A stretch of 64,000 bases of DNA from the NCBI GenBank assembly GCA_013214355.1, contig JABSSL010000012.1, positions 62,001-126,000 of the forward strand. Reading direction: 5' to 3'. The notes beneath the pieces are model-generated. The model worked only from the letters and a program-made list of their open reading frames with translations. It searched no databases and had not been told where the DNA came from. Both the position numbers and the translations under genes were made by a program. This stretch comes from Saprospiraceae bacterium (GTDB taxonomy: Bacteria > Bacteroidota > Bacteroidia > Chitinophagales > Saprospiraceae). This document shows positions 39,040 through 43,525 of the stretch, piece after piece. Every line of letters starts with the position of its first letter. Position 1 is the first letter of the stretch.

Positions 39040-40782
39040 ATGAAAAAACACCCAACCTTGTTTGGGCTTATTTGTCTATTGGTGATTCCTAGTTTTCTCT
39101 GGGCGCAAACCAATAATGACGAATTAAGGCCCGTCACCCGAACCTACGCCTTAACCCAGGCTAATATCGTCACAGAGCCGGGTAAGATGATTGAAGGCGC
39201 TACCATTGTAATTAAGGATGGTTTAATCTCAGCAATTGGGAAGAATGTAAAGATTCCAATTGACGCACAAGTGTTGAAAGCCGACTCCATGTATATTTAT
39301 GCCGGCTTTATTGAAGGCTTATCCCACACCGGTATTCCCAAAGCGGAAGCACAGAGCGGTCGAGGTGGCCGTGGTGGTGGACCTCAAGCTCCCCAAGTCA
39401 AAGATCCTGGCTCCCCACCTAATGATCTAGCTGGAATTACACCTGAGAAAAATTTGGCGGCATCGCTCAAGCCGAGCGATAAATCGATTGCTGACATGCG
39501 AAAGCTGGGTTTTACGGCTGCTAATGTCGTACCCAATGGCCAAATGTTACCTGGGCAAGGCGCATTGGTCTTGCTGCATGGTGACAACGCTGATAAAATG
39601 ATTTTAAAGGATCAAACAGCTTTCTTTTCTCAGTTGGTGGGAGCAAGGAGAATGTATCCCGCTACGGTGATTGCTGTGATCGCAAAATGGAGAGAATTGT
39701 ATCGACAGGCAGAATTGGCACAAGCTCATGAAAAAGCTTACAAAAAAAGCCCAGGTGGCATGTCTCGTCCTTCTTATGATCCTGTCCTACAGGCCTTTTA
39801 TCCCGTGATCAACAAGGAGCAATCCGTGTTTATGAAAGCGAGTGATATCAAATCTGCCTATCGCGCGCTTTCTCTGCAGAAGGAGTTTGATTTGCCCATG
39901 GTCATTGCTGAGCTGAAGCAAGGATGGCATGTAGCAGATGAGCTAAGCAAGCGAGATATCCCCGTATTACTCTCCATGGATTTACCAGAAGATAAAAAAG
40001 GTAAGGGCGGTAAAAAAGGAGGGAAGAAGGGAGATGCAAAGAAAGAAGAAGCTAAAAAAGAGGATCCATTTAAAGCAGAAAGAGAAGCACTGGAAAAGCG
40101 GAAAATGAAGGCTTTAAAAGAACACTGGACACAAGCTGGAAATATGGAAAAGGCAGGTGTGATCTTTGGCTTTTCTACGCTTGATGTGAAAAGCAAGGAT
40201 GTGAAAGCCAATCTACGCAAGATGATTGAAAATGGATTAAGTGAAGATGCTGCCCTGGCTGCCTTGACCACAACTCCCGCCAAAATGCTAGGTGTTTCTG
40301 ATATGCTGGGTACGGTAGCCGCAGGAAAGATAGCCAATTTGGTCGTGACAGATCAGCCTTACTTCGAGGAGAAGTCCAATGTACGATATGTCTTTGTAGA
40401 GGGGAACAAATTTGAGTTTGAAGCGAAAAAACCGGCTAAGAAAAGCGATCATAACGCAAAAGTAGTTGTAGCAGGAAAGTGGACCTACAGTTTCGAAGCC
40501 ATGGGGCAAAACATGGACGGTATCCTAGAATTGGTGGACAATGACGGTGATATCTCAGGCAGTATTACCAATACCGCCATGGGGAATAAAAGTACCATTG
40601 AAACGGCCGAGTTGAATGGCAATGAGCTTTCCTTTAGTATTAAGATCGATGGCGGTGGGCAAACGGTCATGATCGAATACAATCTGGTTATTGAAGGAGA
40701 CAATATGGAGGGAACGGTTTCTGCTGGCCAATTTGGCACCTTCGATCTGGAGGGGGAGCGCATTGGAACACCTAATAAATAA
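39040..40782 (+). CDS. Secreted amidohydrolase-fold protein lacking canonical HxH, with C-terminal beta-rich domain
   Basis: Signal peptide (SFLWAQ); amidohydrolase N-cap (VIKDGLISAIGKNVKIPIDAQVLKADSMYIYAGFIEGLSHTG) and C-part (ALTTTPAKMLGVSDMLGTVAAGKIANLVVTDQPYF). Confidence 0.8.
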   Translation: MKKHPTLFGLICLLVIPSFLWAQTNNDELRPVTRTYALTQANIVTEPGKMIEGATIVIKDGLISAIGKNVKIPIDAQVLKADSMYIYAGFIEGLSHTGIPKAEAQSGRGGRGGGPQAPQVKDPGSPPNDLAGITPEKNLAASLKPSDKSIADMRKLGFTAANVVPNGQMLPGQGALVLLHGDNADKMILKDQTAFFSQLVGARRMYPATVIAVIAKWRELYRQAELAQAHEKAYKKSPGGMSRPSYDPVLQAFYPVINKEQSVFMKASDIKSAYRALSLQKEFDLPMVIAELKQGWHVADELSKRDIPVLLSMDLPEDKKGKGGKKGGKKGDAKKEEAKKEDPFKAEREALEKRKMKALKEHWTQAGNMEKAGVIFGFSTLDVKSKDVKANLRKMIENGLSEDAALAALTTTPAKMLGVSDMLGTVAAGKIANLVVTDQPYFEEKSNVRYVFVEGNKFEFEAKKPAKKSDHNAKVVVAGKWTYSFEAMGQNMDGILELVDNDGDISGSITNTAMGNKSTIETAELNGNELSFSIKIDGGGQTVMIEYNLVIEGDNMEGTVSAGQFGTFDLEGERIGTPNK

Positions 40783-40816
40783 CCACAATTCTTGAGCCTA
40801 ATTTGAAGATGCAATC

Positions 40817-42178
40817 ATGAAAAAAATAATCAATAGTATACTATTCACCTGCGTGGCGCTCAGCTTATTTGGCCAGCTTGACAAAGGTGATATTTTGATC
40901 AAAAATGGCACGGTCATTACCATTACAAATGGGGTATTAGAGGAGACCGATGTACTGATTCAAAACGGGAAAATCACCCGTATTGGTAAAAACCTACGCA
41001 CACCATCTGGCACCAAAGAAGTGGATGCCACTGGAATGCACGTTATGCCAGGTATCATTGACGCCCACTCCCACATTGCCATCGATGCAGTGAATGAAGC
41101 CACTAACCCCGTGACTGCGGAAGTATTTACGGGAGATGCAATTAACCCGCTAGATATTTCCATCTATCGCGCCTTGGCGGGGGGAGTAACTTCATCTCAT
41201 GCCATGCATGGCTCTGCCAATGCCATTGGTGGGCAATGTGAGACGATTAAGCACCACTACGGTTCCTACAATCCGGAAGACTTAAGGATGGTTGGAGCAC
41301 CTCGCACCATCAAGTTTGCACTCGGAGAAAACCCAATGCGGGTGCATGGAGAAGGGCGTGGCATTCAGCCCAGAACTCGTATGGGGGTAGAGCAGGTATT
41401 TCGCAAGGCTTTCTCGGAGGCAAAAGTCTACATGAAAGCTTGGGAAAAGTACAATAATGAGAAAAATACCAATCCCAAAGCTTCAGCACCGGAGTATAGC
41501 TATCGCCTACAGACACTCGCCGATATTCTTACGGGTGATGTCATTATTCATTGTCACTCGTATCGCGCTGATGAGATCCTGATGCTCATGAATGTATGCA
41601 AGGACTTTGGCATTAAAAGACTCTGCTTTCAGCACGTGAATGAAGGCTTCAAAGTAGCACCAGAATTGGCCGAATTTGGGGCGACTGCTTCTGTGTTTGC
41701 AGACTGGTGGGCTTATAAGTTCGAAGTGTACTACTCCACTGCCTATAACGCTTCTATCTTAACGCGCAATGGGGTGGTTACCTCTATCAACTCCGATTCT
41801 GGGGAGTTGATCCGTCACCTCTATCACGAGGCAGGAAAAACGCAGCGATATGGTGACCTATCGGATAATGAAGCCCTGTCTTTGATCACGATTAATCCTG
41901 CCAAGCAGCTAGGCGTAGAGGATCGAATTGGTTCCTTGGAAGTGGGTAAGGATGGTGATGTAGCCATTTTTAAAGGACATCCGCTTTCCGTGTATGCCAT
42001 TCCACAGATGACCATTGTAGATGGTATAGTTCGATTTGATATCAATATGGATCCCGCTGATGTGCGTATGGATGTAAATCCAGAGGAAGATCTTCCTGCT
42101 TTTTTCTTGGAAGTAAAGGAGTATGATAACTGCATGCAAGGGGTACATCATCAGCATCTGTTCTTCCATAGACATTAA
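40817..42178 (+). CDS. Amidohydrolase with canonical metal-binding motifs
   Basis: ATGMHVMPGIIDAHSHIAID (HxH), VIIHCHSYRADE, LCFQHVNEG, SINSDSGELIRHLYHEA, NPAKQLGVEDRIGSLEVGKDGDVAIFKGHPL. Confidence 0.9.
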   Translation: MKKIINSILFTCVALSLFGQLDKGDILIKNGTVITITNGVLEETDVLIQNGKITRIGKNLRTPSGTKEVDATGMHVMPGIIDAHSHIAIDAVNEATNPVTAEVFTGDAINPLDISIYRALAGGVTSSHAMHGSANAIGGQCETIKHHYGSYNPEDLRMVGAPRTIKFALGENPMRVHGEGRGIQPRTRMGVEQVFRKAFSEAKVYMKAWEKYNNEKNTNPKASAPEYSYRLQTLADILTGDVIIHCHSYRADEILMLMNVCKDFGIKRLCFQHVNEGFKVAPELAEFGATASVFADWWAYKFEVYYSTAYNASILTRNGVVTSINSDSGELIRHLYHEAGKTQRYGDLSDNEALSLITINPAKQLGVEDRIGSLEVGKDGDVAIFKGHPLSVYAIPQMTIVDGIVRFDINMDPADVRMDVNPEEDLPAFFLEVKEYDNCMQGVHHQHLFFHRH

Positions 42179-42220
42179 GCAGTTGCTTGAGGATTCATTC
42201 ATCATCAAAAAGAAGACATA

Positions 42221-43525
42221 ATGAAATTCACTATAAAGATTCTTGCTTTCCTGATGCTGGGCCTAAGTACCCTGAGTACATATGGTCAGCAAGTTAGCAA
42301 ACCTGTCAGGGGTACGTTTGCCCTCACCAATGCCACGATCGAAACGATTACCAACGGAAGCGTACAAGGTACCTTGGTGATCGAGAATGGCAATATCTCT
42401 GCTATTGGCCCTAACGTAGCTATTCCACCAGATGCCAAAGTAGTGGACTGTTCTGGCCTATTTGTTTATCCTGGTTTAATCGATGGAGGAACTCAGCTGG
42501 GCTTGGTAGAGGTAAGTTCCGTTTCTTTGACGGCGGATGCCAATGAGATTGGGGATATTAAACCTGAAATGCAGGCCTTAACGGCGGTCAACCCGAATGC
42601 CACTGCCATTCCAGTTACCCGTGTGGAGGGCGTGACTACGACTTTGGTTGCTCCGGTAGGTGGTACCATTCCTGGTACGGCTTCCTTGATTAATTTGGTG
42701 GGGTATACACCCGATCAGATGTTTGCGGGCTTCAAAGGAGTAGTGGTTAATTATCCAAGTGCAGGTCGTAGAGGCCGAAGAGATCGTAGAACAGATGAGG
42801 AGCGAAAGAAGCAAGAGGAAAAGCAGCTGAAAAAACTTAATGATCTCTGGGATAACCTTAGCTTGTACCACAAGCTGGATTCTGCAGCTAAAGCAGGAAG
42901 TGGGGAAGATTTAGATTACAATCCTAAGATGGAAGCCTTGCTACCCGTAATTAGAGGTGAAATGCCAATTCTACTGGAGGTGAACCAAGCTAGCGCCATC
43001 GAATCTGCTATTAAGTGGGTGGGCGAAAAGAAGGTGAAGGCCATCTTTACCGGAGTAGCTGAGGGTTGGCGGGTGGCCGATAAAATTGCAGCTGCCAATA
43101 TCCCCGTGGTTACTGGTCCCGTGTTTAGCATGCCGACTCGTACCTCTGATCGCTATGATACGCCTTATGCCAATGCTGGTAAGATGCATAAGGCCGGTGT
43201 GAAGGTCGCGATTCGCTCTAATGATACGGAAAACGTCCGGAACTTGCCGTACAACGCAGGTTTTGCTGCTGCTTATGGCATGGGTAAGGAAGCGGCCTTA
43301 AAGGCTGTTACAATCGTGCCTGCTGAGATTTTTGGAGTGGCGGACCGATTGGGATCATTGGAAAAAGGAAAGAGCGCTACGCTTTTCGTGACGGATGGAG
43401 ATCCATTCGAAACCAAGACACATGTCAAGCATCTATTTATAGATGGCTGGAATGTACCGCTGGATAGCCGACACATTCGTTTGTACAATGAGTTTTTAGA
43501 ACGTTCTCCAGGATTGGAGAAATAG
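42221..43525 (+). CDS. Secreted amidohydrolase-fold protein lacking canonical HxH
   Basis: Signal peptide (STYGQQ); GLFVYPGLIDGGTQLGLVEVSSV where an active enzyme would have DxHxH; C-part VPAEIFGVADRLGSLEKGKSATLFVTDGDPF. Confidence 0.82.
   Translation: MKFTIKILAFLMLGLSTLSTYGQQVSKPVRGTFALTNATIETITNGSVQGTLVIENGNISAIGPNVAIPPDAKVVDCSGLFVYPGLIDGGTQLGLVEVSSVSLTADANEIGDIKPEMQALTAVNPNATAIPVTRVEGVTTTLVAPVGGTIPGTASLINLVGYTPDQMFAGFKGVVVNYPSAGRRGRRDRRTDEERKKQEEKQLKKLNDLWDNLSLYHKLDSAAKAGSGEDLDYNPKMEALLPVIRGEMPILLEVNQASAIESAIKWVGEKKVKAIFTGVAEGWRVADKIAAANIPVVTGPVFSMPTRTSDRYDTPYANAGKMHKAGVKVAIRSNDTENVRNLPYNAGFAAAYGMGKEAALKAVTIVPAEIFGVADRLGSLEKGKSATLFVTDGDPFETKTHVKHLFIDGWNVPLDSRHIRLYNEFLERSPGLEK

What the first reader, a model, noticed from the sequence alone, without database searches (positions are those of the whole stretch)
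39040..43525. Amidohydrolase trio: one canonical enzyme flanked by two homologues missing the HxH metal motif
The middle protein has DAHSH, HCH, QH and NSD motifs. At the equivalent first-strand position the first has GFIEGLSHTG and the third has GLIDGGTQLG, although both retain the N- and C-terminal amidohydrolase caps. The tight operon (34- and 42-bp gaps) suggests a complex in which two pseudoenzymes support one active subunit, or an unusual active site.
Basis: partly seen in the sequence, partly recalled or inferred. Interest (0 to 1): 0.6.

Follow-up and report, generated by a model that had tools for sequence, protein, structure and literature searches.

The report
Amidohydrolase with two conserved pseudo-subunits
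Three neighbouring genes encode one metal enzyme and two look-alikes that have lost the metal-binding residues; the same threesome, always in the same order and often fused into one protein, recurs across several bacterial phyla, so it is probably a single, undescribed three-part enzyme.

Summary
In the window, B (40817-42178) has the complete set of amidohydrolase metal residues. Its neighbours A (39040-40782) and C (42221-43525) have the fold but not the ligands. The state is ancient: the KxxxGEN motif and HxH occur in 131/131 B relatives; 0/121 A and 0/131 C carry KxxxGEN or the [DE]xHxH motif, across Bacteroidota, Acidobacteriota, Planctomycetota, Hydrogenedentota, Ignavibacteria, Rhodothermales/Balneola and a gammaproteobacterium. 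The order A-B-C is kept everywhere. In most Bacteroidia A and B are one ~1000-aa protein with C directly downstream; Acidobacteriota often fuse B-C; Planctomycetota often fuse A-B-C. A, B and C form three clades with matching branching, and all three are under purifying selection. No conserved histidine replaces the lost ligands. The neighbours vary, so the triad is the unit. Best explanation: an exported A·B·C assembly in which B catalyses hydrolysis and A and C build, stabilise or gate it. Physical association is inferred from fusions and co-inheritance, with moderate AlphaFold support for B-C only; the substrate is unknown. The closest precedent is the inactive pseudo-dihydroorotase needed by Pseudomonas ATCase. 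I found no description of this triad in the searchable literature.

The parts
39040..40782 (+). Subunit A: pseudo-amidohydrolase, 580 aa, N-terminal signal peptide by eye (MKKHPTLFGLICLLVIPSFLWAQ)
   Evidence: ORF; Amidohydro_1 1.6e-11; 3ooq 1.2e-14; no full ligand set in 121 homologues
39304..39333 (+). A first-strand motif GFIEGLSHTG where HxH is expected
   Evidence: Sequence; column statistics
40417..40779 (+). A C-terminal extension (about residues 460-580); eight beta strands predicted in the equivalent part of a fused AB relative; not recognised by Pfam
   Evidence: absent in some relatives (463-464 aa A proteins)
40817..42178 (+). Subunit B: canonical amidohydrolase, 453 aa, signal peptide by eye (MKKIINSILFTCVALSLFGQ)
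   Evidence: ORF; full-length match to 3ooq, 1.4e-61
41066..41074 (+). B metal ligands H84-S-H86
   Evidence: Both His invariant in all aligned B sequences
41312..41332 (+). B K166FALGEN172 motif; candidate bridging carboxylated Lys (K166) or Glu (E171)
   Evidence: 131/131 B, 0/121 A, 0/131 C; aligns with 3ooq KMAFGEN
41555..41557 (+). B H247 ligand
   Evidence: 105/105
41633..41635 (+). B H273 ligand
   Evidence: 105/105
41795..41797 (+). B D327 ligand
   Evidence: 105/105
42221..43525 (+). Subunit C: pseudo-amidohydrolase, 434 aa, signal peptide by eye (MKFTIKILAFLMLGLSTLSTYGQ)
   Evidence: ORF; Amidohydro_1 2.7e-10; 3ooq 1.9e-41
42473..42502 (+). C first-strand motif GLIDGGTQLG where HxH is expected
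   Evidence: Sequence; column statistics

Best explanation
A, B and C are the three subunits of one exported amidohydrolase. B carries the only metal centre (HxH, K/E, H, H, D) and does the hydrolysis. A and C are pseudoenzymes that arose by ancient duplication within the same 3ooq-like family; they bind B and are kept for assembly, stability or access to B's active site. Shown here: conserved ligands in B and their loss in A and C; fixed A-B-C order; natural AB, BC and ABC fusions; co-inheritance; purifying selection on all three. Inferred: stable A-B-C contact, export to the periplasm, catalysis by B. Unknown: substrate and stoichiometry. An amide- or peptide-bond substrate is a weak guess from structural neighbours such as prolidases and arginine carboxypeptidases.
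For: Ligands: B 51/51, no full set in 48 A or 52 C in Bacteroidia; B 80/80, no HxH in 73 A or 79 C in named genomes; combined KxxxGEN counts 131/131, 0/121, 0/131. Co-occurrence in 119 Bacteroidia genomes: B in 89, C in 84, both in 83; C directly downstream in 65 of 90 B copies; B lies in an ORF of 850 aa or more in 83 of 90, with A recognised in the N-terminal half of all but three of the fused ORFs read. In 99 Acidobacteriota genomes: all 44 with B have C, and C is directly downstream in 46 of 48 B copies. Named loci: A-B-C on one strand wherever the contig is long enough, with AB, BC and ABC fusions; more ABC ORFs in Planctomycetota and one in Acidobacteriota. A, B and C are three clades with mirrored inner branching; distance correlations 0.84 (A-B), 0.94 (B-C), 0.84 (A-C), none of 2000 permutations as high. 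dN/dS well below 1, e.g. A 0.06, B 0.02, C 0.04 for one pair and 0.14, 0.09, 0.11 for another. Neighbours not conserved. AlphaFold of a natural B-C segment gives pTM 0.79.
Against: No biochemical or structural evidence of a complex. pTM of a natural A-B fusion is only 0.68, from 11 sequences, with no interface error map returned. Matching trees can reflect shared species history. In about 18 Bacteroidia genomes C lies away from AB, which weakens an operon argument, though both are still present; some of these may be assembly breaks. At least one genome (G059) has AB without a detected C. The fused-ORF count is by length; A itself was checked only in the subset read.
Confidence: 0.75

Rival explanations
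1. A and C are independent binding proteins or sensors for the same ligand, such as periplasmic substrate-binding or storage proteins, encoded with B for co-regulation but never forming a complex with it.
For: A and C keep the barrel fold but no metal residues; C has its own invariant acidic cluster E97, D106, E109 and R134, R340.
Against: Repeated fusion of A-B, B-C and A-B-C in fixed order in different phyla is hard to explain without contact; co-presence even when C is unlinked.
Confidence: 0.13
2. A and/or C are active enzymes with an unusual, metal-free or differently liganded active site.
For: C keeps several nearly invariant acidic and arginine residues near the first-strand loop; C is under strong purifying selection.
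Against: No histidine is conserved in A (best column 0.29) or C (best 0.61), and none of the ligand positions is conserved to a metal-binding residue in A. A has hardly any conserved polar residues.
Confidence: 0.08
3. A and C are decaying paralogues, kept by chance near B.
For: A and C diverge faster than B (mean pairwise difference 0.69 and 0.58 against 0.46).
Against: Kept open across several phyla, dN/dS well below 1, fixed order and fusions.
Confidence: 0.02

Closest known systems
Thermotoga maritima amidohydrolase, PDB 3ooq (structural genomics, no published function found)
   Same: Same fold and subfamily; nearest solved relative of A, B and C; aligns with B over the full length with the HxH, KxxxGEN, H, H and D positions.
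   Different: A single active-type protein; no pseudo-subunits are known with it (its gene neighbourhood was not examined here).
Pseudomonas aeruginosa ATCase-pseudo-dihydroorotase (PyrB-PyrC'), PMC7053772
   Same: An inactive amidohydrolase-fold chain is required for a partner enzyme to assemble and work.
   Different: There the active partner is an unrelated transcarbamoylase; here the active partner is a homologue of the pseudo-subunits, there are two of them, and the system is probably exported.
CRMP / dihydropyrimidinase-related proteins (e.g. PDB 4b91)
   Same: Pseudoenzymes of the amidohydrolase superfamily (prior knowledge); distant sequence matches.
   Different: Animal cytosolic proteins, not partners of an active paralogue in a fixed gene triad.
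Prolidase / Xaa-Arg carboxypeptidase-like amidohydrolases (3feq/3n2c, 3mtw, 3be7)
   Same: Next-best structural matches after 3ooq.
   Different: Fully active homo-oligomers (prior knowledge) without pseudo-subunits; sequence similarity to B is confined to the caps.

Membership tests
Amidohydrolase superfamily (Pfam Amidohydro_1) | Profile match / TIM-barrel amidohydrolase fold | tested here: met
   A, B and C pass the Pfam cut-off; AlphaFold models of natural AB and BC proteins match 3ooq best
Amidohydrolase superfamily (Pfam Amidohydro_1) | HxH on first strand plus His, His, Asp metal ligands | tested here: met
   Subunit B: invariant in all sequences
Catalytic amidohydrolase, for subunit A | Metal ligands present | tested here: not met
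   0 of 121 A sequences have the [DE]xHxH or KxxxGEN motif
Catalytic amidohydrolase, for subunit C | Metal ligands present | tested here: not met
   0 of 131 C sequences have the [DE]xHxH or KxxxGEN motif
Binuclear (subtype I-like) amidohydrolase, for subunit B | Bridging carboxylated Lys or Glu | tested here: inconclusive
   K166 and E171 are both invariant in B; which one, if either, binds metal needs a structure
Pseudoenzyme-supported enzyme complex (PyrB-PyrC' type) | Inactive homologue required for partner activity | not testable with these tools
   Needs purified proteins or deletions
Pseudoenzyme-supported enzyme complex (PyrB-PyrC' type) | Physical association of the chains | tested here: inconclusive
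   Natural fusions; pTM 0.79 for B-C, 0.68 for A-B; no interface map available

The most novel reading that the evidence does not exclude
This subfamily of secreted amidohydrolases is built as hetero-oligomers of one active chain with several dedicated pseudo-chains. The triad is the simplest form, and nine- to ten-domain arrays in Planctomycetota, with one or two HxH members, are larger ones: an undescribed class of multi-subunit enzymes whose pseudo-subunits form the architecture and substrate gate.
Probability: 0.35. Interest if true: 0.8.

Novelty: new variant of a known kind. Interest (0 to 1): 0.62.

Why it matters
It would be a widespread, ancient enzyme in which two of three subunits are dead copies of the active one, kept across several phyla and present in about three quarters of sampled Bacteroidia genomes. 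That turns a set of genes matched only by general amidohydrolase models into one testable object, and gives a natural series (split, AB, BC, ABC) for asking what pseudoenzymes do for an active homologue.

Tried and rejected
Frameshift or decay as the reason for the missing motifs: rejected by conservation and dN/dS. Alternative metal ligands in A or C: none conserved. Function from neighbours: no family recurs in more than 3 of 63 flanking ORFs; the window's own neighbours (LytTR regulator and histidine kinase upstream, SIS/CBS protein and RecQ downstream) gave no lead. NCBIfam: only sub-threshold matches to general amidohydrolase models. An apparent 2531-aa ORF in genome G035 was masked sequence (N), so its missing C is not a real absence. 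Long 'ABC' frames in L196, L198 and L213 proved to be BC fusions with A in another frame. dN/dS between distant GC-rich genomes gave saturated or misleading values and was not used. Literature searches for TM0814, amidohydrolase pseudoenzymes and tandem or inactive amidohydrolases found no description; subscription papers are not covered. Promoter scan uninformative.

Full report
The observation. I call them A (39040-40782), B (40817-42178) and C (42221-43525). All three pass the Pfam Amidohydro_1 cut-off, matched mainly in the C-terminal part for A and C, and have the same best solved relative, the T. maritima amidohydrolase 3ooq. B has DAHSH (H84, H86), K166FALGEN, HCH (H247), QH (H273) and NSD (D327). 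A reads GFIEGLSHTG and C reads GLIDGGTQLG at the HxH position. Each begins with what looks like a Sec signal peptide ending at A/G-Q (by eye), so all three are probably exported.

Is it only this genome? No. In 119 genomes of the same class, B was found in 89, C in 84 and both in 83. C is directly downstream of B in 65 of 90 B copies. In 83 of 90 copies B lies in an ORF of 850 aa or more, usually about 1000 aa. In the fused ORFs that were read, A is recognised by BLAST in the N-terminal half of all but three. The window's split A/B form is shared by three of the sampled genomes (G001, G014, G095) and by many named Saprospiraceae and Cyclobacteriaceae. So the 'operon trio' is one version of a widespread AB+C system. 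In about 18 genomes C lies away from AB, yet both are present; in a single-contig genome (G082) they are about 360 kb apart.

Beyond the phylum. A scan of named genomes with a B alignment gave 80 loci in Bacteroidota, Balneola, Rhodothermales, Acidobacteriota, Planctomycetota, Hydrogenedentota, Ignavibacteria and Idiomarina, plus one MAG labelled Actinomycetota. The order A-B-C on one strand holds in all of them wherever the contig is long enough. Natural fusions occur in every order-preserving combination: AB (L164-L166, L171, L172, L174, L176, L177), BC (L144, L155, L158, L162) and ABC (L151, L153, L167, L168). Further ABC ORFs are L197, L199-L205 (Planctomycetota) and L214 (Acidobacteriota). 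In 99 Acidobacteriota genomes, all 44 with B also have C; C is directly downstream in 46 of 48 B copies, 13 of them in the same ORF.

Metal ligands. Across Bacteroidia the ligands are complete in 51/51 B, with no full set in 48 A or 52 C. In the named loci the six positions are invariant in 80/80 B, and no A (73) or C (79) has the HxH. Combined, KxxxGEN is present in 131/131 B, 0/121 A and 0/131 C. No histidine column is conserved in A (best 0.29) or C (best 0.61). C has nearly invariant E97, D106, E109, R134 and R340 of unknown role. The lysine of KxxxGEN aligns with K in 3ooq's KMAFGEN; in amidohydrolases of the prolidase/arginine-carboxypeptidase type a lysine near this position is carboxylated and bridges two metals (prior knowledge), so B may be binuclear. 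That was not tested.

History and selection. In a maximum-likelihood tree of 76 sequences A, B and C are each one side of a branch (SH-aLRT 100, 100, 99), with the same inner groupings of organisms; 3ooq sits next to B (quick search, no bootstrap). Distances correlate across 72 loci: A-B 0.84, B-C 0.94, A-C 0.84, none of 2000 permutations as high. This is partly expected from shared ancestry. Yet Bacteroidota fall into two separate groups (split type and AB-fused type) in all three trees, so the triad has travelled as a unit. In close pairs dN/dS is far below 1 for all three: 0.060/0.021/0.042 for A/B/C in two Algoriphagus, 0.138/0.094/0.110 in two Blastocatellia-type genomes (many other pairs have saturated dS). 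A and C evolve faster than B but are not decaying.

Structure. AlphaFold2 of the B-C part of a natural ABC protein (L151, 851 aa, 8 sequences) gave mean pLDDT 75 and pTM 0.79. A natural A-B protein (L176, 1007 aa, 11 sequences) gave 72 and 0.68. Two equal domains with unknown mutual placement would be expected nearer 0.5 (my estimate), so the first supports a defined B-C arrangement and the second is weaker. No interface error map was available. Foldseek puts 3ooq first for both (TM 0.87 and 0.78 by target length); in the AB model both a 19%-identity and a 32%-identity alignment to 3ooq appear, which I take as A and B respectively.

Function. Flanking genes are not conserved: no family recurs in more than 3 of 63 neighbours, and the window's own neighbours are unrelated. 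So context gives the unit but not the substrate. After 3ooq the best structural matches are prolidase- and arginine-carboxypeptidase-like enzymes, a weak hint at a peptide-like or amide substrate.

Interpretation. The best-supported reading is one exported enzyme made of A, B and C, with B catalytic and A and C as scaffold, stabiliser or gate. The idea has precedent: an inactive dihydroorotase homologue is needed for P. aeruginosa ATCase to assemble and work (PMC7053772). Here the active chain is itself a homologue of the two inactive ones. Text searches found no description of the triad, with the limit that subscription papers are missing. I rate it a new variant of a known kind: known superfamily, known principle, undescribed system.

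What is and is not shown. Shown by sequence: ligand loss, order, fusions, co-occurrence, selection. Inferred: contact, export, catalysis by B. Unknown: substrate, stoichiometry, the role of A's beta-rich C-terminal extension and C's acidic cluster.

Noticed in passing
L178 4035-15887 (-), L179 3562-16237 (-), L206-L212: Tandem arrays of about nine to ten related amidohydrolase domains in Planctomycetota and a related MAG. The ORF layout 2-1-1-2-active-1-1 (domains per ORF) is shared by L178, L179, L206 and L207 and varied in the rest; one, sometimes two, domains have HxH and the rest are pseudoenzymes.
   Followed up: partly
L180 4176-6891 (-); L054 598-5725 (-); L215 3670-11367 (+): Other clusters mixing active and inactive relatives: a one-active, one-inactive pair (L180), a four-ORF cluster in a Bacteroidia genome (L054), and a five-ORF acidobacterial cluster (L215).
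   Followed up: partly
window C residues 97, 106, 109, 134, 340 (within 42221-43525): Nearly invariant E97, D106, E109, R134 and R340 in C although the catalytic ligands are gone; role unknown, perhaps interface or ligand binding.
   Followed up: no
window 40417-40779: C-terminal extension of A without a Pfam match; eight beta strands predicted in the equivalent region of a fused relative, where it links the A and B barrels; missing in some A proteins.
   Followed up: no
window, A residues about 317-349 (within 39040-40782): Lysine/glycine-rich low-complexity insert (KKGKGGKKGGKKGDAKKEEAKKEDP) inside the barrel region of the window's A.
   Followed up: no
Bacteroidia sample: The split A/B form occurs in G000, G001, G014 and G095 from different families and forms its own clade in all three trees with Cyclobacteriaceae, Balneola and Rhodothermales, suggesting transfer of the whole triad between lineages.
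   Followed up: partly
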